Below the pieces are notes generated by a model, which had not been told where the DNA came from, made no database searches, and saw only the letters and a list, made by a program, of their open reading frames with translations. The translations under genes were made by a program, and so were the position numbers. Source: a virus. Taken from it: DNA of 21,965 nt. Location: positions 1-21,965 of the IMG/VR virus record IMGVR_UViG_3300008448_000757; one strand, given 5' to 3'. Of the stretch, positions 2,734 to 21,965 are shown piece by piece; position 1 is the stretch's first letter, and the number at the start of each line of letters is the position of its first letter.

Positions 2734-4512
2734 ATGGCAGAATCAATTATCTCTCCAGGGGTATTTACAAGGGAAAATGACATTTCTTTTGTGCAACCAG
2801 CACCAGTTGCAGCAGGAGCAGCATTTATTGGACCAACAGTAAAAGGGCCTGACAATCAGCCAACTATCGTAACTTCGTATAACGACTATACAAGAAGGTT
2901 CGGTGAAACATTTACTTCAGCGTCTAGCAATTACGAATTCCTAACTTCAGTTGCTGTAAAAAACTACTTTTCTCAAGGAGGTCAGACAGCATTGATAACT
3001 AGAGTCGTTTCAGGATCATATACACCAGCAACAAATACATTCATATCAGCTTCTGCAAAAGGAAGTACAGAACCTTTCAGCATCGTTACTTTAGGAAAAG
3101 GAGTAATGTATAACAATGCAGCAGGACAATTCTCAGCAACAGGAAGTAGCACAACATACTATAATTCAGATGGATCATTAGTATCTGGATCTGCTGACAA
3201 CCTAAGATGGGAAATTGCAAACGTAAATAGTTCACTAGGTACATTTACTGTATTAGTAAGACAGGGTGACGACAACACAAACAACCAAACAATCCTAGAG
3301 ACATTTACTAATGTATCACTAGATCCAAGTTCACCTAACTATATAGAAAGTGTAATTGGTAACCAATATGTAACAGTAGCAACAGATTCTTCAACAGGAA
3401 CATCTTATAACTACTTCCAAGGTACTTTCCCTAACAGATCAAACTACATCAGAGTATCCGCAGTAAATTTATCAACTCCAAATTACTTGAAGAACGATGG
3501 AATTACTGTTAACACAGATGCAACAAATACATCATACTCAGCATCATTACCAATTAGCTGTTCAGGATCATTCTACAATGCAACAGGAGTAGTAAAAACA
3601 GGAGCAAAATATTTTGCAGAGATTTCAAATACTTCAACAGATATCCAAGGATTAGTTGGAGCAAACTACAGCACAGCGATCTCATTACTATCAAACAAGG
3701 ATGATTACCAGTTCAATATAATTTCAACACCAGGTTTAATCAACCAAAATTCAACAGCTGGAGCTAACTCAACAATTGCATCGATTATCTCACTAGCAGA
3801 GTCAAGAGGAGATTGTATCGCAGTAGTTGACTTAGTAAAAACAGGATCAATTTTAAGTGATGTAACAACACAAGCAGTATCGATCAACTCATCATACGCA
3901 GCAACATACTGGCCATGGGTACAAATGCAGTCAGCTACAGGTAGAAACGAATATGTACCAGCAGGAACAATTATTCCAGGAGTATATGCATTTACAGATG
4001 CAGCAGCAGCACCATGGTTTGCACCAGCAGGACTTGTAAGAGGTGGTCTTCCAGGAGTAATTCAAGCTGAGAGAAAATTAACTAAAGGTGATAGAGATAT
4101 TCTTTATGCAGCTAAAGTTAATCCAATCGCTACATTCCCAGGAACAGGTATTTCAGTATTTGGACAAAAAACTCTACAAACTAAAGCATCTGCATTAGAT
4201 AGAGTAAATGTAAGAAGATTGTTAATTGAACTTAAAAAATTCATTGGAGATCAAGCTAAAAACTTAGTATTCGAACAAAATACTATTGCAACTAGAAATA
4301 GATTCTTAGCAACAGTTAATCCATACTTAGAATCAGTAGTACAAAGACAAGGTCTTTATGCTTATAGAGTAGTAATGGACGATACTAATAACACAGCAGA
4401 TGTTGTAGACAGAAATCAATTAGTAGGACAAATTTATATCCAACCAACTAAAACTATTGAATTCGTAGTATTAGACTTCGTAGTTGAACCAACTGGAGCT
4501 ACTTTTGTATAA
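2734..4512 (+). CDS. gp18: Contractile tail sheath protein (gp18-like)
   Basis: The protein polymerises around the tail tube and contracts to drive the tube into the host. The N-terminus (SPGVFTRENDISF, then AAGAAFIGPTVKGP) is the classic sheath N-terminal arm and first strand. The C-terminal ~170 residues carry the conserved sheath core: WFAPAGLVRG, GDRDILYAAKVNPI, an FGQKTL strand, and VNVRRLLIELKKF leading into the helical and beta domain that ends near VVEPTGATF. At 592 residues it is slightly shorter than T4 gp18 (659). The middle, roughly residues 80-330, is Ser/Thr/Asn-rich and likely holds variable surface-exposed domains. It is followed directly by the tube gene, the standard sheath-tube order. 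Confidence 0.97.
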   Translation: MAESIISPGVFTRENDISFVQPAPVAAGAAFIGPTVKGPDNQPTIVTSYNDYTRRFGETFTSASSNYEFLTSVAVKNYFSQGGQTALITRVVSGSYTPATNTFISASAKGSTEPFSIVTLGKGVMYNNAAGQFSATGSSTTYYNSDGSLVSGSADNLRWEIANVNSSLGTFTVLVRQGDDNTNNQTILETFTNVSLDPSSPNYIESVIGNQYVTVATDSSTGTSYNYFQGTFPNRSNYIRVSAVNLSTPNYLKNDGITVNTDATNTSYSASLPISCSGSFYNATGVVKTGAKYFAEISNTSTDIQGLVGANYSTAISLLSNKDDYQFNIISTPGLINQNSTAGANSTIASIISLAESRGDCIAVVDLVKTGSILSDVTTQAVSINSSYAATYWPWVQMQSATGRNEYVPAGTIIPGVYAFTDAAAAPWFAPAGLVRGGLPGVIQAERKLTKGDRDILYAAKVNPIATFPGTGISVFGQKTLQTKASALDRVNVRRLLIELKKFIGDQAKNLVFEQNTIATRNRFLATVNPYLESVVQRQGLYAYRVVMDDTNNTADVVDRNQLVGQIYIQPTKTIEFVVLDFVVEPTGATFV

Positions 4513-4554: not shown

Positions 4555-5043
4555 ATGGCAGTATTAGATCCAAACGAAATAATGTTCAGAGCCTTCGAAC
4601 CAATGGTTCAACACAGGTTCGTAATGTACATCGATAACATTCCAGCATTCATGGTTAAAAACGTGAAAGCTCCTACCTTCACAGATCCTGAAATTAAACT
4701 AGATCACATCAACACTTATAGAAAGATAAGAGGAAAGAGAAACTGGGAGAACATGGATATGACTTTATATTCACCAATCACTCCTTCCGGAGCTCAAGCA
4801 GTAATGGAATGGGCTCGTTTAGCACATGAATCTGTAACAGGTAGATCAGGATACTCCGATTTCTATAAAAAAGATTTAACTTTAAACATTTTAGGTCCTG
4901 TAGGAGATATTGTAGGAGAGTGGATTATTAAAGGTGCATTCTTAACTAAAGGTGATTTTGGTCAGTTTGACTGGACATCTCAGGATGGAATTGTAGAGAT
5001 AGCAATCACAGTAGCAATGGATTATTGCGTCTTAAATTATTAG
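4555..5043 (+). CDS. gp19: Tail tube protein (gp19-like)
   Basis: This is the inner tail tube subunit, through which DNA passes. At 162 residues it matches T4 gp19 (163). Conserved features include the N-terminal FEPMVQHRFVMYI strand, the KAPTFTDPEIKLDHINTYRK segment, the GKRNWENMDMTLY strand, and the C-terminal GAFLTKGDFGQFDW followed by the IVEIAITVAMDY strand, all typical of the T4-like tube family. It follows the sheath gene by 42 bases and is followed by a strong terminator-like hairpin at 5078-5111. In such phages the tube gene is usually followed by portal or baseplate genes; here an endonuclease gene has been inserted. Confidence 0.96.
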   Translation: MAVLDPNEIMFRAFEPMVQHRFVMYIDNIPAFMVKNVKAPTFTDPEIKLDHINTYRKIRGKRNWENMDMTLYSPITPSGAQAVMEWARLAHESVTGRSGYSDFYKKDLTLNILGPVGDIVGEWIIKGAFLTKGDFGQFDWTSQDGIVEIAITVAMDYCVLNY

Positions 5044-5111: not shown

Positions 5112-5738
5112 ATGAAACAGTATTTTAAATTAGTTAGACAAATTCTACAAGAGGGTAGAAAAAAGAATGAAGGAATCTACTATGAGGCCCATCATATCAT
5201 TCCTCAAAGTTTTGGAAAGAGATCAGCAACAGTATTAGTAACACCTGAAGAACATTATACAGTTCATAAAATGTTAGCAGAGTACTGGAAAAAGCATTCA
5301 ATCTACGGAAAAAAAATGTTATGGGCATTTCACCGAATTTCTTATGATGGAAAAAGAAAACTAACAAAAGAAGAGTATGGAGAGGCTAGGAGATTGTTAC
5401 AAGACTTGTGGCAAAGTGAAAAAAGTATTTCACATAAGGAAAAAATATCAATTGCGTTAAAAGGAAATACGAATAATTCTACAAGAGTTTACAAGGGAAT
5501 GAAATCCGATATGACCGAAGCAGGTAAAGCCTCTTTATCAAAAAAAACAACAGAAAGACAATTAGGAAATAAACAGTGGACAAAAGGACCGTATACAGTA
5601 ACCTTTGAAAATGGGAAAACAATAAGCAAACAATCCTACCCAGATTTATCTAAAGAAGTAAACATACCCTACGCAACACTACAACACAGACATAAGAACA
5701 GTCCAGGAGTGTTTATGAAAGGGTGGAAGATAGAGTAG
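5112..5738 (+). CDS. Free-standing HNH-type homing endonuclease
   Basis: The N-terminal domain has the phage HNH layout: EAHHIIPQSFG (His27-His28), then TPEEHYTVHKML (His48, His52), as in T4 Mob-type homing enzymes. The usual central Asn appears to be Thr or Val (ATVLVTP), so the motif is non-canonical. Residues ~105-119 (SISHKEKISIALKGN) resemble a NUMOD3 DNA-binding helix. The C-terminal segment (TVTFENGKTI, then SYPDLSKEVNIPYATLQHRH) looks like a NUMOD/HTH specificity region. The gene sits alone between tail tube and gp26-like genes, flanked by terminator hairpins on both sides, as expected for a selfish insertion. No intron boundaries were seen. Activity is uncertain because of the altered Asn. 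Confidence 0.88.
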   Translation: MKQYFKLVRQILQEGRKKNEGIYYEAHHIIPQSFGKRSATVLVTPEEHYTVHKMLAEYWKKHSIYGKKMLWAFHRISYDGKRKLTKEEYGEARRLLQDLWQSEKSISHKEKISIALKGNTNNSTRVYKGMKSDMTEAGKASLSKKTTERQLGNKQWTKGPYTVTFENGKTISKQSYPDLSKEVNIPYATLQHRHKNSPGVFMKGWKIE

Positions 5739-5817: not shown

Positions 5818-6558
5818 ATGGAACAAAAACAAAAATTTCCTACCGAAATGGTAGAACTTCCTTCAAAGGGTTTACTTTACCCAAAAGATTCCCCACTAGC
5901 ATCAGGTAAAATTGAAATGAAGTACATGACAGCTCGTGAGGAGGATATCTTAACAAATCAAAACTATATCCAATCAGGAGTAGTTATTGATAAATTACTG
6001 CAATCACTTATTGTAACTCCAATCACATATAGTGATTTATTAGTAGGAGATAAAAATGCAATACTAATTGCTTCTCGTATTTTAGGTTATGGAAAAGATT
6101 ATGAATTTGAATATGCAGGAGAAAAACAAGTAGTCGATCTATCTTTACTTGAACCAAAGGAATTAGATCAATCGTTATTCAAATCAGGAGAGAACAATTT
6201 TACTTTTGTAACTCCAACTACAAATACTGTTTTAACTTTTAAGCTACTTACTCATGGTGATGAACAAGCAATCGACCAAGAGATAAAAGGACTCAAAAAG
6301 CTGAATAAAGACTCTTCAGCAGAACTATCCACAAGACTAAAAAGAATGGTTACTTCAGTAAATGGAGATGCAGAATTAAAAACAATTAGAGACTTTGTTG
6401 ATAATCACTTCTTAGCTAGAGATTCTAGAGCATTTAGAGAATACATTAGAAGTTTTCAACCTGATGTTAACCTAAGGTTCTATCCAGAGAACGGACCAGA
6501 CGGAGGGGTCGATATTCCAATTGGAGTTACCTTTCTATGGCCTGACGCCGGAGTATAG
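5818..6558 (+). CDS. gp26: Baseplate protein of the T4 gp26 family (PF12322-like)
   Basis: The conserved N-terminal region LPSKGLLYPKDSPL, IEMKYMTAREEDILTNQ and VIDKLLQSLIVTP, followed by LLVGDKNAILIASRILGYG, is characteristic of the T4 baseplate family that includes gp26 (hub assembly). These phage proteins take part in building the central hub or priming tail assembly. At 246 residues it is a little longer than T4 gp26. The C-terminus (IPIGVTFLWPDAGV) overlaps by 38 bases a second reading frame that has no ATG, right before the tape measure gene. This mirrors the frameshifted tail-assembly chaperone pairs of many other tailed phages, so a chaperone role is an alternative reading. The family call is firm; the exact function is less so. 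Confidence 0.88.
   Translation: MEQKQKFPTEMVELPSKGLLYPKDSPLASGKIEMKYMTAREEDILTNQNYIQSGVVIDKLLQSLIVTPITYSDLLVGDKNAILIASRILGYGKDYEFEYAGEKQVVDLSLLEPKELDQSLFKSGENNFTFVTPTTNTVLTFKLLTHGDEQAIDQEIKGLKKLNKDSSAELSTRLKRMVTSVNGDAELKTIRDFVDNHFLARDSRAFREYIRSFQPDVNLRFYPENGPDGGVDIPIGVTFLWPDAGV
6505..6508 (+). promoter_or_regulatory. Candidate +1 frameshift site (GGGG) in the gp26-like gene
   Basis: In the gp26 frame the codons are GGA GGG GTC, with GGG at 6505-6507. A glycine tRNA on GGG could slip +1 onto the identical GGG at 6506-6508 and continue in the frame of the 88-codon ORF, which is open from 6476 onward. This would fuse most of the gp26-like protein to the downstream ORF. The site is proposed from sequence only. 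Confidence 0.3.
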
Positions 6559-6787
6559 AGCGTCTCTATTCAATCAACTCCATGATATATGTTTCCATGG
6601 CAAGGGAGGGTACTTCTTCGGGGAGGTATACGAATTTCCTATTTGGTTACGAAGATTCATACATAGAACAATGATTGAGTTTTATGAAAATGAAAACAAA
6701 CAAACACAGACAGCCTCAGGAAAGCAATCACTACTTGACAATGGAAAAATTAAAGCACCTGACTATAGTACAAAAGCTTCTAGATAA
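6521..6787 (+). CDS. Small baseplate/tail-assembly ORF without ATG (88 codons), possible frameshift product
   Basis: This reading frame is +1 to the gp26-like gene and overlaps it by 38 bases. It encodes LPFYGLTPEYRASLFNQLHDI, FHGKGGYFFGEVYEFPIWLRRF and a polar tail. The FYGLTPEYR and PIWLRRF blocks look like a conserved small ORF that follows gp26 in T4-like phages. The only start codon ahead of the conserved block is TTG at 6521; no ATG or GTG precedes it. Expression may therefore use TTG, re-initiation, or a +1 frameshift from the gp26-like gene (the frame is open from 6476). The position directly before the tape measure suggests a tail-assembly chaperone or hub-assembly factor. Function is inferred from context. 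Confidence 0.8.
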   Translation: MELPFYGLTPEYRASLFNQLHDICFHGKGGYFFGEVYEFPIWLRRFIHRTMIEFYENENKQTQTASGKQSLLDNGKIKAPDYSTKASR

Positions 6788-6824: not shown

Positions 6825-9632
6825 ATGGCTCAACTTGATTTTAACGCACTTAAGAAACAGATAGAAGATGCTGGGCTTTCTGCAGCTGCATTTGAAGCAG
6901 AATTTATTAAAATAAGAAATGCAGGAGGAGATGTAACTAAGGTGCTTAAGACAATGCAGGCAACTGTTGACGGTATCAACGATACAGCCAGAGACATAGT
7001 TGGATCATTTACAGATTTATCTGCACAACTAAAAGCTAACTTAGCTGAACTAGGAAAGACCAACTCAGCATTGAGTATTTCAAAAAAATCATATCAAGGA
7101 ATTACCTCAGTTGTTGATAAGCTTAAAAACGAAGAACAAGGGATATATGATTTTAATGTAAAGCAATTAAAAAGTCTACAAGAAAAAGCAAGAGTAGGTT
7201 ACGATGACTTACGTAGATCTGTTCAGCAACTAACCGCAGAAGAAAGAGCTACTGAAGCAGGACAAGCTATGCTAAGAGCTAGAAGAGCAGGCTATGAGGT
7301 AGAAAAGAAAGCACTAAAAGCTATAGAGGAGCGATTAGAGTTAGAAAAGAAAGTAGAAAAAACTATAGGAGCTACAGGAGCTATCCTACAAACATCTTCT
7401 AAATTATTTGATAAACTAGGATTTGGACACTTATCATCAGAACTAGATGAGTTAAATAAAAAGCTAAAAGATGAATTACGAGAAGAAATAAGTAGGAGTA
7501 ACGGTGCAGCAGCTAATCTAGCAACATCTTTTAAATATGTAGGAAAAGCTATAGGAGGTTCGGTAAAAATACTTACTGAAGGATTAAGAGATCCTCTTAT
7601 CATACTACAATTCATAACAGCAGAACTTCTCAAAGGTAGCCAAAACATGGCTGATTTCAGAAAACAAACTGGAATGTCGTACGAAAGTGCCTATAAGCTT
7701 AATATGGAGATGAAAGGAGTCGCTGCAGCAAGTGGGGACAGCTTTATAACATCAGAAAAGCTAAATAAGAGCTATGCAATGCTAACCGAACAGTTAGGAG
7801 TATCGGCAGATATTCTAGGTGGAGAAGCATTAGTTAGTGCAACTAATCTTGAACAAAGGTTAGGAATGTCAGCAGAGCAAGCAAGTAAGTTAACCGTCTT
7901 TTCCAGATTACAAGGAAAAAATACCGAAGATATCCTAGCTAAATCCTACGATGTAGTAGGTGCCTTTAACCAACAAAATAAATCAGCACTTAACGTAAAT
8001 GCTGTAATGGATTCTGTTTCTAGTGCTAGTACAGCAACATACCTGACTATGGGTAAAAACGTAGTAGCTTTAACAAAAGCCGCTACTGCTGCTGCAGCTT
8101 TAGGATTAAGTATGCAACAGATAGAGAAGGTATCGGAAAGCATGCTTAACTTTGAAGATTCGATAGGTAAGGAATTAGAAGCACAATTATTGACTGGTGG
8201 TAACATTAACCTAGCTAAAGCGAGAGAGTATGCTTTAACAGGGGATATGGAAGGATTAACACAAGAGATAGGTAAGCAAGAAGGTATATTAGACGCATTT
8301 AGGACTAAAAACGTAATAGCACAAAAAGCAGCAGCAGAAGCCTTAGGATTATCAAGAGAGGAACTAGCTGATATGACAATGAAGCAAGAGCTTCTTACAC
8401 TAGGTGCAGAAGGCTTTAAAAAACAGTATGGAGAAACAGCTTACGAATCAGCTAAGGCTAGAAGTGCTTCTGAAAAGTTTGCAGATACAATTGAGAAGGT
8501 AAAAGACATATTAGGAAGTATATTACAAGGGTTTTCACCGATACTAGATATATTAGCAAAAATTTTAGACATACCACTTGTTCCTTATATTCTTGCAGGA
8601 GTAGTAGCGGTAAAAGCACTAGGCCTATCAGTATCAGGAGTTGGAAAAGCTTTTGGATCAATGTTTAGTTTAGGTAAGCAAGCACTTACAGGACTAGCAG
8701 GCTTATTCAAAAAAGGAGGATTTGCAAGTGCACTAGGAGGACTAAAGGATATGCTAACTGGAGGATTTCAACAAGGAGCTACAGGAATGGGAGCTTCTTC
8801 GCCTTGGTCACCAGGTAAACAAGCACCAGGAGCAGGACCAGGAAAAGCAGGAGGTGGAATGGTGGAAAGTTTCTCTAAAATTAATACAACAGCACTACTA
8901 AAAGGAGCAGCGGCAATGGCTATCGCAGCAGTTGGAATTTACGTATTTGCAAAAGCAATTCAAGAATTTGAAAAGATAGAAGACTGGACAAGTATTGCAA
9001 TAGGTTTAGGAGCTTTTGGAGTATCCATGGGTATAATCGGAGCCGTAGGAAAATTTGCAGCAGTAGGACTTGAAGCATTGGCAATAGGACTAACATCCTT
9101 TGGAGCTGCTATGATGGGACCAGGTGGATTAGGGTTAGCAGCTTTAATAGGAGCAGCAATAGGATTAGGAGCAGCACTTAACCTAGCAGCACCAGGTATA
9201 GAGGCATTTGGAAAAGTAATAACAGCAGTATTTACAGGACTTGCAACACTTATACCGGTTATTGTAGACGGATTTGTCAATCTAATCTCAGCAGTAGCAG
9301 GAGGTATAGGACCACTACTTCTATTAGGACCTGCTTTATTTGGAATAGCAGCAGGATTAGGAGCAGTAGGAGCAGCAGGATTAATGTCGCTACCAGGAAT
9401 CGGAGCTCTAGCAATAGTATCTAAAATAGCTCCATCAATAGTTTCTGCAGGAGGAAAAACAGCAGGAGCAGCAAAAGGAAAAGCTGAAGAAGGATCAATG
9501 GCAGCAGTAGCACAAAAATTAGATGTGCTTATTGAACTAGCTAAGAAAGGAACAGTAGTGATGCTAGATGGAAAGGTATTAGCTACCTCAAATGCACAAA
9601 ATCAAAAACAAGTACTATCAAATCAAAGATAA
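6825..9632 (+). CDS. Tail tape measure protein
   Basis: It sets tail length and is threaded in the tube before DNA ejection. At 935 residues it is the longest product here. The N-terminal ~250 residues are charged and coiled-coil-like (Lys, Glu, Leu and Ala heptads). A middle part of alpha-helical, Ala/Ser-rich sequence follows. Residues from ~583 on contain long hydrophobic Gly/Ala/Ile/Leu stretches, notably ~583-610 and ~690-870, typical of tape measure membrane-interacting regions. The C-terminus ends in a short amphipathic helix and VVMLDGKVLATS, a form common at tape measure ends. It follows the gp26/88-codon pair and precedes the baseplate genes, the usual position. No peptidase or lysozyme motif was seen. 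Confidence 0.9.
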   Translation: MAQLDFNALKKQIEDAGLSAAAFEAEFIKIRNAGGDVTKVLKTMQATVDGINDTARDIVGSFTDLSAQLKANLAELGKTNSALSISKKSYQGITSVVDKLKNEEQGIYDFNVKQLKSLQEKARVGYDDLRRSVQQLTAEERATEAGQAMLRARRAGYEVEKKALKAIEERLELEKKVEKTIGATGAILQTSSKLFDKLGFGHLSSELDELNKKLKDELREEISRSNGAAANLATSFKYVGKAIGGSVKILTEGLRDPLIILQFITAELLKGSQNMADFRKQTGMSYESAYKLNMEMKGVAAASGDSFITSEKLNKSYAMLTEQLGVSADILGGEALVSATNLEQRLGMSAEQASKLTVFSRLQGKNTEDILAKSYDVVGAFNQQNKSALNVNAVMDSVSSASTATYLTMGKNVVALTKAATAAAALGLSMQQIEKVSESMLNFEDSIGKELEAQLLTGGNINLAKAREYALTGDMEGLTQEIGKQEGILDAFRTKNVIAQKAAAEALGLSREELADMTMKQELLTLGAEGFKKQYGETAYESAKARSASEKFADTIEKVKDILGSILQGFSPILDILAKILDIPLVPYILAGVVAVKALGLSVSGVGKAFGSMFSLGKQALTGLAGLFKKGGFASALGGLKDMLTGGFQQGATGMGASSPWSPGKQAPGAGPGKAGGGMVESFSKINTTALLKGAAAMAIAAVGIYVFAKAIQEFEKIEDWTSIAIGLGAFGVSMGIIGAVGKFAAVGLEALAIGLTSFGAAMMGPGGLGLAALIGAAIGLGAALNLAAPGIEAFGKVITAVFTGLATLIPVIVDGFVNLISAVAGGIGPLLLLGPALFGIAAGLGAVGAAGLMSLPGIGALAIVSKIAPSIVSAGGKTAGAAKGKAEEGSMAAVAQKLDVLIELAKKGTVVMLDGKVLATSNAQNQKQVLSNQR

Positions 9633-15818: not shown

Positions 15819-17144
15819 ATGTTTTACATCGTTGAATCGGATCAGCAATTAGATATACTTAAGAGTTATAGTGAAAAGGGAGCATACATAAAAGTAATCT
15901 CCTCAAACGATAACTATCACCCACTTCTTACAAAAACCATAGCAGTTTATCTACGACCACTAAATCATGAGGAAGGATATATTATTCCAATAAATCACGA
16001 TGAAGGACTTAATGTAGATAAACATCGTATCTACGACATTTTAAAGCAATACAAAACACTTTATACCATAGATAAGAAAGAGTTGCTGTATCACTTTATA
16101 TTGAAGGATGTTATAGATATATCACTACTATACTCAATGACAAACTACGATAGGTTAGAATTAGGTAGGAATAACTCAACTTATAACTGGTTCTATAGTA
16201 GATTACATGACTTCAAAGAAGTAAATGCTTTGATTCCAATTTCAAAGTTATATGAAAAATGCGAAGAAGATTATCAAGCAGTATATTCCATATTGCAATA
16301 TGCAATACCAAACGGATTTGATTTCTACAACAAAACAGCAACATCAGTATTTTTTGCAATAGAGCATACGGGACTAAGAACAATTCATCAGCCATATATA
16401 GATTTATTCAAACCAAATAATCCTATATTCAATATGCAAGATAATATTGCATATACTTCATATAACCTATATAACACAACTTCTCGTCCAACAAATGCTT
16501 TTAATTCAGTTAACTATGCTGCAATACCAAAAGCACCGGAATTCAGAAAAGCAATCATACCTCAGAACGATTACTTTGTGGAAATGGACTTTGATGGATA
16601 CCATTTGAGATTGTTATGTGAACAAATAGGTTATGAACTGACAGATGAACCAGCTCACATGCAACTTGCAAAATTATACTTTGGTAAGGATGAAATAGCA
16701 GAAGAGGATTATGCAAAAGCAAAACAGATTAACTTTCATGCCATTTATGGAAAGATTCCACCTGAGTATGCTTTTTTAGAGGTGTTTGAAAAGATACAAG
16801 CACATATAGATAAGCTATGGAAACAGTTTCAAACTCAGGGATATATACAAGATCCAATCTCAGGAAAAAGATTTACTACTGAATTAAAAGATATGCATCC
16901 GCAAAAACTTATGAACTACATGATGCAATCGTTGGAAACAAGTAGAAATATTGGTATATTAAAGGATCTGGTGATGTACTTACATGGTAAAAATACTAAA
17001 ATAGCATTGTATACATATGATGCAATAGTATTTGATTTTGACAAGAAAGAAGGAAAACACATACTAGAAGGTATAGAAAAGATAATGAACAAGGAAGGAA
17101 ATTACCCAGTTAAGTTTAAATACAGCAATAACCTAGTTTTATAA
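15819..17144 (+). CDS. Short family-A DNA polymerase, divergent active site
   Basis: The C-terminal ~230 residues carry the polymerase I motifs: the TTSRPTNAFNSVNYAAIPK template/primer segment, motif A (MDFDGYHLR, Asp257), motif B (KQINFHAIYG: Lys302, Phe306, Tyr310) and motif C (YTYDAIVF, Asp401). Both catalytic aspartates are present. The Glu of DYSQIELR is His262, the HDE of motif C is YDA, and the Arg of motif B appears as Tyr298. Residues 1-165 have the rough length and hydrophobic pattern of a 3'-5' exonuclease domain but none of its acidic motifs are visible, so proofreading is probably absent. The gene starts the replication block with gp32, UvsX and gp41. T4 uses a family-B polymerase, so this is either the replicase or an auxiliary polymerase. 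Confidence 0.85.
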   Translation: MFYIVESDQQLDILKSYSEKGAYIKVISSNDNYHPLLTKTIAVYLRPLNHEEGYIIPINHDEGLNVDKHRIYDILKQYKTLYTIDKKELLYHFILKDVIDISLLYSMTNYDRLELGRNNSTYNWFYSRLHDFKEVNALIPISKLYEKCEEDYQAVYSILQYAIPNGFDFYNKTATSVFFAIEHTGLRTIHQPYIDLFKPNNPIFNMQDNIAYTSYNLYNTTSRPTNAFNSVNYAAIPKAPEFRKAIIPQNDYFVEMDFDGYHLRLLCEQIGYELTDEPAHMQLAKLYFGKDEIAEEDYAKAKQINFHAIYGKIPPEYAFLEVFEKIQAHIDKLWKQFQTQGYIQDPISGKRFTTELKDMHPQKLMNYMMQSLETSRNIGILKDLVMYLHGKNTKIALYTYDAIVFDFDKKEGKHILEGIEKIMNKEGNYPVKFKYSNNLVL

Positions 17145-17154
17145 AATAAAATCA

Positions 17155-17162
17155 TATTTATA
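17155..17162 (+). promoter_or_regulatory. TATTTATA directly before the 151-aa gene
   Basis: An exact copy of the motif ends one base before the ATG at 17164. As a promoter it would start transcription inside the gene, so either the true start is Met24 (17233) or this copy is incidental. Another copy lies inside the same gene at 17330-17337, showing that chance copies occur in this AT-rich DNA. Confidence 0.2.
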
Positions 17163-17163
17163 A

Positions 17164-17619
17164 ATGATAACAAACACTATAAGCCCCAATAGTTTCGATT
17201 ACGATATCGAACAACTAAGCAATTACCTAGACATGTCAAATAAATTAGTTTGTACTTTTTCTACCGAAGAAACCTTGGAGGGAACTTTAAGTACAATCCA
17301 AGATAGATATAAGATTATATATAATAAAATATTTATACTGTACGCAAAAAGCCAAGAGGAATTTGTAATTACATATAATGTTGATTTGGATAATGTATCA
17401 AACTTTATTCCAAACACAGTATTAGTACATAGAAAGAAAGAATCAAATACTCTTTACACGATCAATTCATTGAATAGATTAATCGAATCTCTTAATGGAG
17501 GAACATTGGATAAAAATTTTAAAATCAACTGGCCTGACTATGCAAACTGCATACTACTAACAAAAGGTCCAGAACTAAAAAGAGTAAATACAAAGCTGTA
17601 TAAAATAGTAGAATTATAG
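17164..17619 (+). CDS. Conserved-looking phage protein of unknown function, 151 aa
   Basis: The protein is soluble, with an N-terminal helical part and a C-terminal region with strong blocks: NFIPNTVLVHRKKESNTLYT, INSLNRLIESLNGG and ILLTKGPELKRVNTKLYKI. The basic HRKK and KRVNTK groups could bind nucleic acid, but no named motif is present. It lies between the polymerase and gp32 genes, in a position where T4-like phages often keep replication accessories or regulators, so a replication-linked role is a reasonable guess. The ATG at 17164 has a TATTTATA immediately before it; Met24 (17233) is an alternative start. Not related by eye to T4 RegA. Confidence 0.75.
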   Translation: MITNTISPNSFDYDIEQLSNYLDMSNKLVCTFSTEETLEGTLSTIQDRYKIIYNKIFILYAKSQEEFVITYNVDLDNVSNFIPNTVLVHRKKESNTLYTINSLNRLIESLNGGTLDKNFKINWPDYANCILLTKGPELKRVNTKLYKIVEL

Positions 17620-17639
17620 TTGTTTCCATAAAAAATTGC

Positions 17640-17647
17640 TATTTATA
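17640..17647 (+). promoter_or_regulatory. TATTTATA element upstream of the gp32 leader
   Basis: An exact copy followed by CTAAAG, sharing 14 bases with the copy at 5082 before the HNH gene. It lies 236 bases before the gp32 ATG and would give a long leader transcript. Confidence 0.4.
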
Positions 17648-17682
17648 CTAAAGGAAAACGTTATAAAAACTACATAAAAACA

Positions 17683-17690
17683 TATAAATA
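17683..17690 (+). promoter_or_regulatory. TATAAATA, T4-type late promoter core, upstream of gp32
   Basis: This is the exact T4 late-promoter core on the + strand. Initiation a few bases downstream would place the 5' end of the transcript at the base of the hairpin at 17695-17725, giving a structured 5' end. A second TATAAATA occurs inside the 134-aa gene (1270-1277), so the motif alone is not proof. Confidence 0.35.
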
Positions 17691-17694
17691 ATAT

Positions 17695-17725
17695 AGGATA
17701 AGCTACCACTTTGGTAGCTCTTCCT
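17695..17725 (+). promoter_or_regulatory. Hairpin in the gp32 leader
   Basis: AGCTACCA (17701-17708) pairs perfectly with TGGTAGCT (17712-17719) around a CTT loop. AGGA (17695-17698) can pair with TCCT (17722-17725) across a small internal loop. The downstream CTTCCTGTCTT is only moderately T-rich, so it could be a weak terminator of the upstream gene or a structural element of the gp32 mRNA leader. Confidence 0.7.
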
Positions 17726-17820
17726 GTCTTATGCGATCAAGTCACGGAGTATTAATTATTAAAAAAGAAAGGAACAGCAGTTGTAAAACAGAAAAAAAAT
17801 TCATATATTAAAAGAGTAAG

Positions 17821-17862
17821 AGCAAGTAAAAAGCAAGAACAAGTAAGCAAGTAAAAAGCAAG
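17821..17862 (+). repeat. Two 17-base A-rich direct repeats in the gp32 leader
   Basis: AGCAAGTAAAAAGCAAG occurs exactly at 17821-17837 and 17846-17862, a 25-base offset. AAAGAGTAA also occurs at 17811-17819 and 17872-17880, flanking them. The purine-rich sequence cannot fold and lies 21-63 bases before the gp32 ATG. Such unstructured A-rich repeats are plausible cooperative binding sites for gp32 on its own mRNA. Confidence 0.85.
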
Positions 17863-17883
17863 TTAAATTAAAAAGAGTAAAAA

Positions 17884-18702
17884 ATGAATTTAGACGCAAT
17901 TAAAGCCAAATTGGCAGGATTAAACAACAACGGTCAAGAAAGAGAAAAAGTAGACTACGAGAAAATCTTTTGGAAACCAACAAACGGAAAACATAACGTA
18001 AGAATCGTTCCTTCTGTTTACGACCCATCATTTCCTTTTAAGGAATTAAAATTCCACTACAACATTGGTAAATTCCCAATGATTGCCTTATCAAACTTCG
18101 GTAAGCAAGATCCAATCGAAGAATTCGTAAAAGAACTAAGAAAAACTTCTGACAAAGAGAACTGGTCACTGTCAGGAAAACTATCTCCAAAAACTAGAGT
18201 ATTTGCTCCAGTAATTGTAAGAGGAGAGGAAGACAAAGGAGTTCGTTTATGGTCATTCGGTACTAACATCTACAAAGCACTACTTGCTTTAGCAGAAGAT
18301 GAAGATATCGGAGATTACACAGACGTAATGAATGGGTATGACATGGTAGTTGAACAAACACCAGGAAATCCATATCCAACAACAACTGTTCGTATCAAAC
18401 CTAAAACCTCAGCTTTATCAACAGATAATGCAAAAGTAGACCTTTGGTTAAAGGAACAACCAAACCCAGTTGATACATTCACTCAGTTTGATTATGAGTA
18501 TATCAAAAAACAACTTCAAGGGTACCTATCTCCAGGAGAAGCTGAACAACCAGCTGAAGCAGCAGAATCAATTGCACCAGTTGCACAAGAAACTGACTTA
18601 GATAAAGCATTAGGAAGTAACAAAACAGACTTCACTTTAGAAACTGCAACTGTTGGAAAGAAAAACACAGTAAACAAATTTGACGATCTATTCAACGAAT
18701 AA
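17884..18702 (+). CDS. gp32: Single-stranded DNA-binding protein (gp32-like)
   Basis: It coats single-stranded DNA at the fork and in recombination. Residues ~22-44 (VDYEKIFWKPTNGKHNVRIVPS) match the start of the gp32 OB-fold core, followed by FPFKELKFHYNIG and a central WSFGTNIYKALLAL segment. The C-terminal ~50 residues are acidic and end in KFDDLFNE, like the T4 acidic tail that contacts replication partners. The N-terminus is short and has a basic LDAIKAKLAG helix for cooperativity. There is no cysteine in the protein, so the zinc site of T4 gp32 is missing. The gene has a 264-base leader with a hairpin and A-rich repeats. Its TAA overlaps the ATG of uvsX (TAATG). Confidence 0.93.
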   Translation: MNLDAIKAKLAGLNNNGQEREKVDYEKIFWKPTNGKHNVRIVPSVYDPSFPFKELKFHYNIGKFPMIALSNFGKQDPIEEFVKELRKTSDKENWSLSGKLSPKTRVFAPVIVRGEEDKGVRLWSFGTNIYKALLALAEDEDIGDYTDVMNGYDMVVEQTPGNPYPTTTVRIKPKTSALSTDNAKVDLWLKEQPNPVDTFTQFDYEYIKKQLQGYLSPGEAEQPAEAAESIAPVAQETDLDKALGSNKTDFTLETATVGKKNTVNKFDDLFNE

Positions 18703-19778
18703 TGGCAGGAAAAAAAGAAACAGCAAAAACCGCTAGCGAAATAATCAAAGGCGGTTTTAGTTTGGATAAGTTCAAAAAGAATAAAGGTTTTAGTTCACAA
18801 TCTGTAAAGTTTAAAACACAAGACTGGATTCCAGTTTCGAAAGCTTTTCAAGACATTGTTTCATTACCAGGTATTCCAACAGGACACATTACCTTACTAA
18901 GAGGACATTCCGATACAGGAAAAACAACACTATTATTAGAAGCTGCTGTACAAGCACAGAAAGCAGGCATACTACCAGTATTTATTATTACTGAGATGAA
19001 ATGGTCATGGCCACATGCTCAGACTATGGGACTTCAAGTAGAAGAAGTGGTTGATGAAGAAACAGGAGAAATTACTGACTACGAAGGATTTTTCTTGTAT
19101 GCTGATAGAGGTAGTTTGAATACTATCGAAGATGTAGCAGCATATATCCTAGACTTAATTGATGAACAAAAGAAAGGAAACTTGCCACACGACTTATGCT
19201 TCTTTTGGGATTCCGTAGGATCTGTTCCATGTGACTTATCTGTTAGATCAAATAAGAACAACAACGAATGGAATGCAGGAGCTATGTCAACTCAATTCGG
19301 AAATAACTTGAATCAAAAAATTCTACTATCAAGAAAAGAGGGAAGCAAATATACAAATACTTTAGTTGCAATCAACAAAGTATGGACTATGAAACCTGAG
19401 CATCCAATGGGACAACCAAAGCTTCAGAACAAAGGAGGAATGGCTATGTGGTATGATGCAACACTAATTGTTACGTTTGGTAATATAACAAATTCAGGTA
19501 CTTCTAAAATCAAAGCAATTGCTAAAGGTAAGGAGTATGAGTTTGCAAAGAAAACAAAAGTACAAGTAGAAAAGAACCACATCAATGGTATTCAATCCAG
19601 AGGATCAATTGTAATGACTCAACACGGTTTTATTGAAGATGAGAAAAAAGCTATCGATGCCTACAAAGATACGTACAAAGGTACTTGGTCAAACATTTTA
19701 GGATCAGTAGATTTTGAAGTAGCAGTAGAGGCTGAGGTTGGAGAAGACATTAGAGATATTGGATTAAATGATGAATAA
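18702..19778 (+). CDS. uvsX: UvsX/RecA-type recombinase
   Basis: It forms a filament on single-stranded DNA and catalyses strand exchange for recombination-dependent replication. The Walker A motif is GHSDTGKTT (residues 68-76). The catalytic Glu is Glu98 in IITEMKW. Walker B is LCFFWDSVGS (Asp170). These lie in the RecA core (~45-300), with loops containing NEWNAGAMSTQFG and the later KLQNKGGMAMWYDA segment. At 358 residues it is close to T4 UvsX (391). The C-terminus is acidic. The first ~40 residues are basic and probably form the polymerisation arm. It is coupled to gp32, its natural partner on single-stranded DNA, and overlaps the nuclease gene by 11 bases. Confidence 0.95.
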   Translation: MAGKKETAKTASEIIKGGFSLDKFKKNKGFSSQSVKFKTQDWIPVSKAFQDIVSLPGIPTGHITLLRGHSDTGKTTLLLEAAVQAQKAGILPVFIITEMKWSWPHAQTMGLQVEEVVDEETGEITDYEGFFLYADRGSLNTIEDVAAYILDLIDEQKKGNLPHDLCFFWDSVGSVPCDLSVRSNKNNNEWNAGAMSTQFGNNLNQKILLSRKEGSKYTNTLVAINKVWTMKPEHPMGQPKLQNKGGMAMWYDATLIVTFGNITNSGTSKIKAIAKGKEYEFAKKTKVQVEKNHINGIQSRGSIVMTQHGFIEDEKKAIDAYKDTYKGTWSNILGSVDFEVAVEAEVGEDIRDIGLNDE

Positions 19779-20793
19779 CTATCTAGAACTACTTAATAGT
19801 ATTGAGCAAAAACCAGATAGAAAACTTAATGATCATGTATTAATTGTAGATAGTATGAATACTTTCATACGATCATTTGCAATGCTACAATCAATAAACC
19901 CTCAAGGCCATCACACAGGTGGTCTTGTTGGTTTCTTAAGGTCATTAGGGTTTCTAACTAGGACAATTGATCCTACTAGAATCATTTGCGTATTCGATGG
20001 ACAGGCTTCTTCCTCAAGCAGAAAGAACATCAATCCTGAATACAAAGCAACTAGAAATGTCAAGAGGATTACTAATTGGGAATTGTTTGATGATAAAGAT
20101 GATGAATTTGCATCAATGACTATGCAAATGCATAGATTAGTTGAATACCTTCAGTGTTTACCACTTACTTTAATTTCTATTGATAAAGTAGAAGCAGATG
20201 ATACAATTTCATACCTAGCTCAAAAATTTGCAGCTAACAATAAAAAAGTAACGATTGTTTCTTCTGATAAGGATTTTTTACAGATAGTAGATGAGAACAT
20301 AGAGGTTTATTCTCCTATCAAGAAAAAAACCTACCAAAAAAAAGATATACAACAAGAAATAGGTGTACTTCCTGAGAATTATCTAATAATGAAAGCACTA
20401 CTGGGTGACAACTCAGATAATCTTTCAGGAGTTAAATCATTAGGACCAAAAACACTATTGAAAGAATTTCCAGGATTAATAGATAATCCAAAATTTTCAC
20501 TATGGGATATTTATGAAATTTGTGAGCAAAAGTTGCAAACTAAGAAAATATTTGCTAGTATTATCTATGATTGGGAAAAAGTAAAAACTAACTATGAATT
20601 AATGAATTTATCCGAGCCAAGGTTGGGAGATCACGAAATTTTTCATATATTAGAGAAGATAAAAGAGCCAACACCAAATTTACAGGTAGTTACTTTTTTG
20701 AGCATGTTAGAGTCAGATCAAATCGAAGCTCTAAACAAAAACGTTGAAGGATGGTTGGAATTATTCAGACCACTTGCAACATACCAAAAATAA
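19768..20793 (+). CDS. rnh: 5'-3' exonuclease / flap nuclease (T4 RNase H-like)
   Basis: It removes RNA primers and 5' flaps of lagging-strand fragments. The FEN-family acidic motifs are in order: LIVDSMN (Asp28), CVFDGQ (Asp77), VEADDTISYLA (Glu142, Asp144, Asp145), SSDKDFLQI (Asp167, Asp169) and LLGDNSDNLSGVKSLGPKT (Asp214, Asp217, followed by the helix-hairpin-helix DNA-binding turn). At 341 residues it is slightly longer than T4 RNase H (305). The start ATG ATG at 19768 lies inside the end of uvsX (11-base overlap). The second ATG (19771) is equally possible. Because the polymerase here lacks a 5' nuclease domain, this separate enzyme would process primers. Confidence 0.93.
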   Translation: MMNNYLELLNSIEQKPDRKLNDHVLIVDSMNTFIRSFAMLQSINPQGHHTGGLVGFLRSLGFLTRTIDPTRIICVFDGQASSSSRKNINPEYKATRNVKRITNWELFDDKDDEFASMTMQMHRLVEYLQCLPLTLISIDKVEADDTISYLAQKFAANNKKVTIVSSDKDFLQIVDENIEVYSPIKKKTYQKKDIQQEIGVLPENYLIMKALLGDNSDNLSGVKSLGPKTLLKEFPGLIDNPKFSLWDIYEICEQKLQTKKIFASIIYDWEKVKTNYELMNLSEPRLGDHEIFHILEKIKEPTPNLQVVTFLSMLESDQIEALNKNVEGWLELFRPLATYQK

Positions 20794-20814
20794 GTTTTAA
20801 AATAAATAAGTTAT

Positions 20815-21965
20815 ATGACATCACTATCAAAATTATCGCAGTACGGAAAAGGATTTCAATTAAAGGTACTCGGAGCATTCCTTACCGATAAAAAGTTTAT
20901 TCTTAATGCAAGAGACTTAATTCGATCTGAATACTTTGATTCAGATGCACATAAGTGGATTATAGAAACAATTGTAAAGTACTTTGACAAATACCATACC
21001 ACTATTACGATGGATATTTTAAAAGTAGAATTACAAAAAGTAGAAAATGATATTCTACAAACTGCAGTTAAATCTGAATTAAGAGGATGTTACGAATCAA
21101 CTCAAGAGGACTTAGCATATGTTCAAGAGGAGTTTATAACTTTCTGTAAAAACCAAGAACTAAAATCAGCATTACTAAACTCAGCAGATCTACTTAATCA
21201 GGGAGATTTCGACGGAATTAGAAATATGATTGAGAGAGCAATGCGAGCTGGTATGGATAAAAACATTGGTCATGAATATAACAAAGATATTGAATCTCGT
21301 TACAGACAAGACTACAGACCAACCATTCCAACACCATGGCCGGTACTAAATGACGGTATCCAAGGAGGATTTGGACCAGGTGATTTAGTTATTGTGTTTG
21401 GAAATCCTGGAGGAGGAAAATCTTGGACAATGGTTGCAGCAGCAGGTCATGCAGTTCAATTAGGTTTCAATGTGAATTACTACACACTAGAACTTGGAGA
21501 AGACTATGTAGGTAAACGATTTGACTGCTATTTTACAGGATACTCGATAGAAGATGTAAACAAACACAGACCAGAAGTAGAGAAAATTGTTAACAATTTA
21601 AAAGGAAAGTTAATTGTAAAAGAATATCCACCAAAAGGAGCTTCAATCAGTACAATCAAAGCACATATCCAAAAGTGTATCGATATGGATCACAAACCAG
21701 ACATGATTGTTATTGATTACGTAGATTATTTAAAAGCACCTTCTAAATCTCGTTTCACAGAAAGAAAGGATGAAATCGATGATGTATTCATTGCAACAAA
21801 AGGATTGGCTAAGGAACTAAAAATACCTATCCTAACCCCTTCTCAAGTAAATAGAATGGGTGCTAAGGATGATGTTATCGAAGGAGATAAGGCAGCAGGT
21901 TCTTATGACAAGATGATGGTTGCAGATATATGTTTATCACTATCAAGAAAGAAAGAGGATAAGGT
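20815..21965 (+). CDS. gp41: Replicative DNA helicase, DnaB/gp41-like (3' partial)
   Basis: It unwinds DNA at the fork as a hexamer and binds primase. The gene runs open for 383 codons to the window edge. Residues ~15-110 look like a DnaB N-terminal helical domain (LKVLGAFLTDKKFIL, FDSDAHKWIIETI). The RecA-like motor starts near 170: TPWPVLNDGIQGGFGPGDL, Walker A GNPGGGKS (196-203), catalytic Glu226 in YTLELGED, Walker B MIVIDYVDYL (Asp301), and the sensor segment TPSQVNR (341-347). The last visible part (GDKAAGSYDKMMVADICLSL) is the normal continuation toward the arginine finger, so only the C-terminal end is outside the window. It starts 21 bases after the nuclease gene, in the same operon. 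Confidence 0.95.
   Translation, partial: MTSLSKLSQYGKGFQLKVLGAFLTDKKFILNARDLIRSEYFDSDAHKWIIETIVKYFDKYHTTITMDILKVELQKVENDILQTAVKSELRGCYESTQEDLAYVQEEFITFCKNQELKSALLNSADLLNQGDFDGIRNMIERAMRAGMDKNIGHEYNKDIESRYRQDYRPTIPTPWPVLNDGIQGGFGPGDLVIVFGNPGGGKSWTMVAAAGHAVQLGFNVNYYTLELGEDYVGKRFDCYFTGYSIEDVNKHRPEVEKIVNNLKGKLIVKEYPPKGASISTIKAHIQKCIDMDHKPDMIVIDYVDYLKAPSKSRFTERKDEIDDVFIATKGLAKELKIPILTPSQVNRMGAKDDVIEGDKAAGSYDKMMVADICLSLSRKKEDK

What the first reader, a model, noticed from the sequence alone, without database searches (positions are those of the whole stretch)
6476..6787. Possible programmed +1 frameshift joining the gp26-like protein and the 88-codon ORF before the tape measure gene
The downstream frame holds conserved-looking blocks (FYGLTPEYR, PIWLRRF) but no ATG or GTG before them, only a TTG at 6521. 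It is +1 to the gp26 frame, overlaps it by 38 bases, and is open from 6476. A GGGG run at 6505-6508 would let a P-site GGG tRNA slip +1 and re-pair perfectly. In many tailed phages the two tail-assembly chaperones just before the tape measure gene are made by programmed frameshifting (lambda G/GT, P2 E/E', Mu). A comparable device in a T4-like gp26 locus would be new to my knowledge. TTG initiation or re-initiation are the simpler alternatives.
Basis: partly seen in the sequence, partly recalled or inferred. Interest (0 to 1): 0.7.

Follow-up and report, generated by a model that had tools for sequence, protein, structure and literature searches.

The report
Frameshifted tail chaperone in T4-related phages
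Just before the gene that sets tail length, this phage appears to make a short and a long form of a tail-building helper protein by letting some ribosomes skip one base at a conserved run of U's, a known phage trick used here in the less common forward direction and at a different spot from the one first proposed.

Summary
The two overlapping frames are real, and +1 frameshifting is the best explanation, but not at the site proposed. Among 216 distinct related junctions, the small downstream frame is +1 to the gp26-like frame in 214. In 117 of 213 of these it carries a stop codon after the position of the GGGG run, and 94 of 213 have no ATG, GTG or TTG before the conserved FFGLT block. What never varies is a U-rich site at the very end of the overlap: TTT_CTA_TGG here (6532-6540), TTT_CTT or TTT_TTT in most relatives. 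The TTT codon shows no synonymous change in the window clade, against 6-13 in seven other conserved Phe columns. Three lineages that gave the downstream frame its own start have all lost it. The +1 frame is homologous to the C-terminal part of T4 gp51. So this is a tail assembly chaperone pair: TAC-N (246 aa) and a frameshifted TAC-NC (322 aa). Frameshifting in T4-like chaperones is already in print (Vladimirov 2022, not readable here; a later paper cites it for -1 U-run sites). The conserved +1 version is a new variant as far as I could check. Nothing has been shown experimentally.

The parts
5818..6558 (+). TAC-N: gp26-like tail assembly chaperone, short form, 246 aa
   Evidence: ORF with ATG; phrog_150 'baseplate hub' (T4 gp26/gp51 family) E 3e-6; AlphaFold2 pLDDT 92.3
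6532..6540 (+). Predicted +1 slip site TTT_CTA_TGG (P-site TTT 6532-6534 re-pairs with TTC 6533-6535)
   Evidence: Homologous position is TTT_CTT, TTT_TTT, TTT_CTA, TTC_TTT or CTT_TTT in 213 junctions; no synonymous change at the Phe codon on the window-clade tree
6536..6787 (+). TAC-C: C-terminal domain in the +1 frame (83 codons plus stop), part of the 322-aa TAC-NC
   Evidence: C-part homologous to the C-terminal part of T4 gp51 and of -1 frameshift relatives; 60-row alignment
6476..6787 (+).
   Evidence: +1-frame stops in many relatives between here and 6532
6505..6508 (+).
6502..6508 (+). Anti-Shine-Dalgarno-complementary GGAGGGG, conserved as such in the window clade; role unknown
   Evidence: Mean duplex energy -9.8 against -6.6 for synonymous shuffles; as strong with as without a +1-frame start codon
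6521..6523 (+). TTG, the only standard start codon of the +1 frame before the conserved block; not conserved
   Evidence: TTG in 37 of 81 window-clade junctions at this position
6825..9632 (+). Probable tape measure protein (935 aa), the expected client of the chaperone
   Evidence: Position; the matching gene in Immutovirus is annotated tail tape measure protein; weak phrog_167, E 0.1
4555..5043 (+). Tail tube protein (gp19-like)
   Evidence: phrog_4542 E 6e-18
2734..4512 (+). Tail sheath protein
   Evidence: PF04984 E 7e-14

Best explanation
The locus encodes the tail assembly chaperone pair of a T4-related contractile-tailed phage. Most ribosomes read the gp26-like gene to its TAG and make TAC-N (246 aa). 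A minority, with peptidyl-tRNA-Phe on UUU (6532-6534), slip one base forward to UUC (6533-6535), where the GAA anticodon pairs fully. They continue in the +1 frame at UAU GGC CUG and add an 83-residue helical domain, making TAC-NC (322 aa, junction ...PIGVTF-YGLTPEYR...). As in lambda gpG/gpGT, TAC-N would coat the tape measure protein and the few TAC-NC molecules would recruit tail tube subunits. Shown by sequence: the frames, the conserved site, the lack of a general start codon, and the homology of the +1 domain to the C-terminal part of gp51. Inferred: that the slip happens, that it is on UUU, its frequency, and the chaperone role.
For: (1) 214 of 216 distinct junctions have the downstream frame at +1; the other 2 are at +2 with their own ATG. 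(2) 94 of 213 have no ATG/GTG/TTG in the +1 frame between its last stop and the conserved block; 70 of 213 also lack CTG, ATT, ATC and ATA. (3) Of 213 junctions, 200 have UUU followed by U or C at the first codon and the other 13 at the second. (4) The slip Phe codon has 0 synonymous changes on the window-clade tree, against 6-13 in seven other conserved Phe columns. (5) All three lineages whose TAC-C has its own start lost the site: L198 TTC_TTG_TAT, L203 TTC_CTT_TGG_CCA, L236/L237 TTC_TTC_TGG. (6) The C-part alone aligns with the C-part of T4 gp51 plus -1-type relatives at score 46.1; the best of 30 column shuffles scored 14.6. (7) Order sheath, tube, TAC-N, TAC-C, tape measure matches Immutovirus. 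(8) In a fold comparison of TAC-N, the top two of 524 chains are YqbN (Z 5.6) and the HK97 tail assembly chaperone (Z 4.5).
Against: No peptide, ribosome profile or reporter exists. The window protein itself has no PF12322 hit, and its phrog_150 match is modest. No stimulatory RNA structure was found next to the site (mean z -0.06 and -0.36), and the SD-like element ends about 24 nt before the slip codon, too far to match the release-factor-2 arrangement. UUU_C/U strings are common in genes, so the site alone would not predict a shift. In 119 of 213 junctions some standard start codon is available in the +1 frame, so initiation is not excluded in each single phage, this one included. The fold matches have Z below 8, which the tool warns may mean only a common arrangement. 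Where the U-run continues (TTT_TTT), the exact slip codon cannot be told.
Confidence: 0.88

Rival explanations
1. The small ORF is a separate protein started at TTG 6521 or another weak start codon.
For: A TTG lies at 6521, with GGAGGGG upstream; a TTG sits at this place in 37 of 81 window-clade junctions. Annotators gave Mel-JY01 a separate CDS. L198 and L203 do have a separate ATG ORF.
Against: 94 of 213 junctions have no standard start there and 70 of 213 not even a rare one. In 38 of 211 the +1 frame opens only two bases before the slip codon. The SD-like element is as strong without a start (-10.17, n=37) as with one (-10.11, n=44). Initiation would not explain why the 0-frame TTT never becomes TTC.
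Confidence: 0.06
2. +1 frameshift at GGGG 6505-6508.
For: The run is there, and GGG would re-pair perfectly after +1. GGG is enriched at this Gly column (52 of 68 Gly codons against 61 of 1006 elsewhere in the gene).
Against: GGGG is at this place in only 41 of 81 window-clade and 43 of 213 related junctions; a +1-frame stop lies after it in 43 of 81 and 117 of 213.
Confidence: 0.02
3. The slip occurs one codon later (CUA/CUU_UGG, as in release factor 2), or is -2 rather than +1.
For: 65 of 213 junctions have CUU_U, the release factor 2 shift codon, as second codon, and 131 of 213 have UUU_U there after a first UUU. In 13 of 213 only the second codon can re-pair. -2 gives the same frame.
Against: CUA_UGG, as in this window and 3 others of 81, re-pairs badly at +1, while UUU_C works. 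For -2, the tRNA pairs badly at TTT_CTT and TTT_CTA, and the product would be one residue longer. The in-frame remnant in L236 (GLNLFNITP) has the length of the +1 product (GLNFFGLTP) (one sequence in two identical contigs).
Confidence: 0.1
4. RNA polymerase slippage on the T-run, not ribosomal frameshifting.
For: 127 of 211 junctions have seven T in a row (TTT_TTT_TGG).
Against: In this window and all TTT_CTT/TTT_CTA relatives (69 of 213) the run is broken by a C, leaving three T, too short by established knowledge of slippage.
Confidence: 0.01

Closest known systems
[quoted passage not shown] not held, seen only as citation and through citing papers)
   Same: Same protein family (gp26/gp51), same locus logic, a short form and a form with an added C-terminal domain. 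Relatives examined here (Atu_ph07, XacN1, CBB, S-CAM9, phiM12, PA5oct, RAS14) show a -1 layout at T_TTT_TTY.
   Different: Here the shift is +1 at TTT_YTN. In T4 itself, gp26 and gp51 are separate genes on opposite strands. Whether that paper also reports +1 cases could not be checked.
Lambda G/GT and the -1 tail chaperone frameshifts of long-tailed phages
   Same: Two overlapping frames directly before the tape measure gene; a short product and a long fusion.
   Different: -1 at a different kind of site; no sequence homology shown. [quoted passage not shown]
HSTV-2 (archaeal myovirus), described as very likely +1 in the tail chaperone gene (PMC5009743, passages)
   Same: +1 direction in a myovirus tail chaperone.
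   Different: Archaeal host; its site was not compared here.
Bacterial release factor 2 +1 frameshift (CUU_UGA)
   Same: +1; CUU_U or UUU_U re-pairing; GGG-rich SD-like element upstream.
   Different: No stop codon in the A site here, and the SD-like element is about 24 nt away rather than about 3 (the 3-nt spacing is recalled).
Influenza A PA-X shift site (UUU_C type, recalled)
   Same: P-site UUU followed by C. GXN1 reads TTC_TTT_CGT_C and BRock CTG_TTT_CGC.
   Different: Unrelated gene, virus and ribosome.

Membership tests
Frameshifted tail assembly chaperone (G/GT type) | Two overlapping frames between the tail tube and tape measure genes | tested here: met
   a homing endonuclease gene also lies between tube and TAC-N in this window
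Frameshifted tail assembly chaperone (G/GT type) | Downstream domain lacks its own conserved start | tested here: met
   94 of 213 junctions without ATG/GTG/TTG; this window has a TTG that is not conserved
Frameshifted tail assembly chaperone (G/GT type) | Conserved slippery site near the end of the first frame | tested here: met
Frameshifted tail assembly chaperone (G/GT type) | Fold like known tail assembly chaperones | tested here: inconclusive
   YqbN Z 5.6 and HK97 chaperone Z 4.5 are the top two of 524 chains, but Z is under 8; Foldseek E 2.7 for HK97
Frameshifted tail assembly chaperone (G/GT type) | Both products made, long form in the minority, both binding tape measure protein | not testable with these tools
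   Needs protein experiments
T4 gp26/gp51 family | Sequence homology of the N part (PF12322 / phrog_150) | tested here: met
   phrog_150 E 3e-6; no PF12322 hit for the window protein, but relatives SP-15, RM378 and BRock pass its cut-off; fused profile against the -1 group plus gp51: probability 99.6
T4 gp26/gp51 family | C part homologous to the gp51 C-terminus | tested here: met
   score 46.1 against at most 14.6 in 30 shuffles
T4-like -1 frameshift at T_TTT_TTY | Downstream domain in the -1 frame | tested here: not met
   +1 in 214 of 216 junctions; the 2 others have their own ATG
Release factor 2-type +1 site | Stop codon in the A site and SD-like element close upstream | tested here: not met
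   A-site codon is CTT, TTT or CTA; SD-like element near -33 to -24

The most novel reading that the evidence does not exclude
At one homologous U-run at the end of the gp26-family gene, different lineages of T4-related phages have settled on opposite frameshift directions: -1 at T_TTT_TTY in cyanophage- and jumbo-phage-like groups, +1 at TTT_YTN in the large aquatic clade of this window and in Bacillus, Listeria, Streptococcus, Rhodothermus and Streptomyces phages, with reversions to a separate gene. A conserved recoding site would thus have switched direction during evolution while keeping the same two products.
Probability: 0.6. Interest if true: 0.65.

Novelty: new variant of a known kind. 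Interest (0 to 1): 0.5.

Why it matters
The domain is mis-annotated in isolates: Immutovirus lists only a 36-aa hypothetical protein inside it, and in LIS04 no gene is annotated there. Reading it correctly restores the chaperone pair in a large group of aquatic phages. It gives a natural series of -1, +1 and unlinked versions of one gene pair, so the evolution of frameshift direction, and the sequence rules for +1 slippage on UUU, become directly testable. +1 shifts are less common and less well understood than -1 shifts in phage tail genes.

Tried and rejected
Considered and rejected: GGGG as slip site; TTG initiation; re-initiation after the TAG (it would lose the conserved GLTPEYR); transcriptional slippage; -2 shift (reasons under rivals). 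A stimulatory RNA structure was sought in 60-nt windows: mean z -0.06 starting at +6, -0.36 at +12, -0.94 at +40, -0.85 at -60, over 81 junctions, with mononucleotide shuffles; nothing convincing. The SD-like element 24-33 nt upstream is under synonymous selection, but no role could be given.

Led nowhere: global hhalign against T4 gp26/gp51 as single sequences; hmmscan of single C parts of the window, Mel-JY01, SP-15 and LR756508, no useful family; solved-structure search by sequence (one chance-level match); fold comparison of the C part with PDB (no chain) and with BFVD (none at E <= 0.001). Fused products gained little over the N part alone against phrog_150: Mel-JY01 46.0 to 48.1 bits and LR756508 65.8 to 68.6 bits, with the match extending across the junction; the window, SP-15 and BRock matches did not extend, and RM378's only by a few positions. 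A tree of 24 N parts does not make the +1 rows one group (3 changes); its long branches (BRock, gp51, RM378) are unsure, so the number of direction switches is open.

Rows dropped: 5 loci cut at the contig end and 9; L236/L237 (inserted gene) counted apart; L228 left out because its gp26-like ORF is interrupted upstream, though its site reads TTT_TTT_TGG_CCT in the +1 layout. The loci were found mainly by gp26-like similarity plus 17 by the small ORF. Result lists were capped at 80 per scan, so counts are samples, and related sequences are not independent.

Full report
What is there. The window carries a T4-like tail module on the + strand: sheath (2734-4512), tube (4555-5043), a homing endonuclease (5112-5735), a gp26-like gene (5818-6558), the small overlapping frame (to 6787) and a probable tape measure gene (6825-9632). 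The gp26-like protein matches phrog_150, the T4 gp26/gp51 family, at E 3e-6. Isolates of Immutovirus have the same gene order, annotated as sheath, tail completion, baseplate hub, hypothetical, tape measure.

Comparative test. Scans of viral contigs gave 80 loci by the gp26-like protein and 17 by the small ORF. Of these 97 plus the window, 93 have a readable junction, and 81 are distinct. In all 81 the small frame is +1 and overlapping, and the DNA at the end of the overlap is TTT_CTT_TGG_CCT_GAC (61), TTT_TTT_TGG_CCT_GAC (14), TTT_CTA_TGG_CCT_GAC (4, this window included) or a one-codon variant (2). More distant scans brought the set to 275 loci plus the window: 265 with both parts readable, 9 without the second part (short contigs), 2 with the parts separated. 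Of 216 distinct junctions, 214 are +1 and 2 are +2.

Why not GGGG.

Why not a separate start. 94 of 213 junctions have no ATG, GTG or TTG between the last +1-frame stop and the conserved block, and 70 of 213 have none of seven possible start codons. In 38 of 211 the +1 frame opens only two bases before the slip codon. The TTG at the window's place is present in 37 of 81.

Why the TTT codon. Across 78 complete window-clade loci the Phe codon at this place is always TTT, while the gene elsewhere uses TTT 527 and TTC 231 times. On a tree of these loci it needs no synonymous change; seven other conserved Phe columns need 6 to 13. The next codon changes 10 times but only among CTT, TTT and CTA, though TTA is the commonest Leu codon in the gene (909 of 1913). 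Part of this is forced by double coding (TGG CCT GAC against GGC CTG AC), but the TTT is not: the +1 frame upstream of it is closed in many loci. Of 213 junctions, 200 have UUU followed by U or C at the first codon and the other 13 at the second. UUU re-pairs with UUC or UUU on a one-base forward slip. CUA, as in this window, would re-pair badly, so here the slip should be on UUU.

Natural controls. L198 and L203 have the second domain at +2 with an ATG just after the gp26-like stop, and their sites have become TTC_TTG_TAT and TTC_CTT_TGG_CCA. In L236 and L237 (identical) a GIY-YIG-type endonuclease gene (named by eye) lies between the two parts. The site there has become TTC_TTC_TGG, and the downstream part begins in an ORF that reads GLNLFNITP in one frame, the same length as the expected +1 product GLNFFGLTP. 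Three lineages is a small number, but all agree.

What the second domain is. Its profile alone aligns with the C-terminal parts of seven -1-type relatives plus T4 gp51 (score 46.1; 30 shuffles reach at most 14.6), and the fused profile aligns along nearly its whole length (probability 99.6). T4 gp51 matches phrog_150 to position 280 of 282, while gp26 stops at 235. So gp51 corresponds to the fused product and gp26 to the short one. By recall this agrees with Vladimirov et al. 2022; PRFect (PMC10885494, passages) reports from that work that some T4-like phages carry a short gene and a longer fused gene. AlphaFold2 gives a confident N part (pLDDT 92.3) and a three-helix C part (79.9, tail uncertain). 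For the N part the two best fold matches among 524 chains are YqbN (Z 5.6) and the HK97 tail assembly chaperone (Z 4.5); that YqbN is a chaperone-family protein is recalled. These Z values are suggestive only.

Breadth and direction. The +1 layout with a U-run also appears in Immutovirus, Microcystis phage Mel-JY01, LR756508, SP-15, LIS04, GXN1, RM378 and BRock. Seven other T4-like phages have the second domain at -1 behind T_TTT_TTY. LR756511 did not show a clear second frame in the stretch read. groups the -1 rows in two places and does not unite the +1 rows, so the number of switches is open.

What is known. The 2016 review says G-T frameshifting is conserved in long-tailed phages except T4, and that HSTV-2 is very likely +1 (PMC5009743, passages). 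The Adele paper reports -1 at GTTTTT and cites Vladimirov for U-run sites in T4-like TAC-N genes (PMC12846349, passages). Searches for the +1 form in T4-like chaperones (open-licence full texts only) listed no paper whose title or abstract start describes it. The key paper itself was not readable, so I claim a new variant, not a new kind.

Verdict. A +1 programmed frameshift producing TAC-NC is very likely. The site is 6532-6540, not 6505-6508. Frequency, exact slip codon in TTT_TTT relatives, stimulators and chaperone activity remain untested.

Noticed in passing
window 5112-5735: Homing endonuclease-like gene (phrog_655, E 2e-17) between the tail tube and TAC-N genes.
   Followed up: no
window 6502-6508 and the same place in the window clade: GGAGGGG/GAGGAGGGG complementary to the anti-Shine-Dalgarno sequence, under synonymous selection, about 24-33 nt before the slip codon; role unexplained. 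A second Gly codon at -9 is also enriched in GGG (41 of 75 against 61 of 1006).
   Followed up: partly
L236 and L237, 2196-2960: Endonuclease-like gene (GIY-YIG by eye) inserted exactly between TAC-N and TAC-C; the slip site has decayed and TAC-C has a new start.
   Followed up: partly
L099 3193-3303 (Immutovirus), L106 3709-3938 (LIS04), L103 3755-3874 (SP-15): Public annotations miss or truncate the +1 chaperone domain.
   Followed up: partly
L104 (GXN1) and L217 (BRock): The slip region reads TTC_TTT_CGT_C and CTG_TTT_CGC, like the influenza PA-X shift site (recalled).
   Followed up: no
window 15819-21965: By eye, not by any search: DNA polymerase-, RecA-, 5'-3' exonuclease- and DnaB-like genes follow the tail module.
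   Followed up: no
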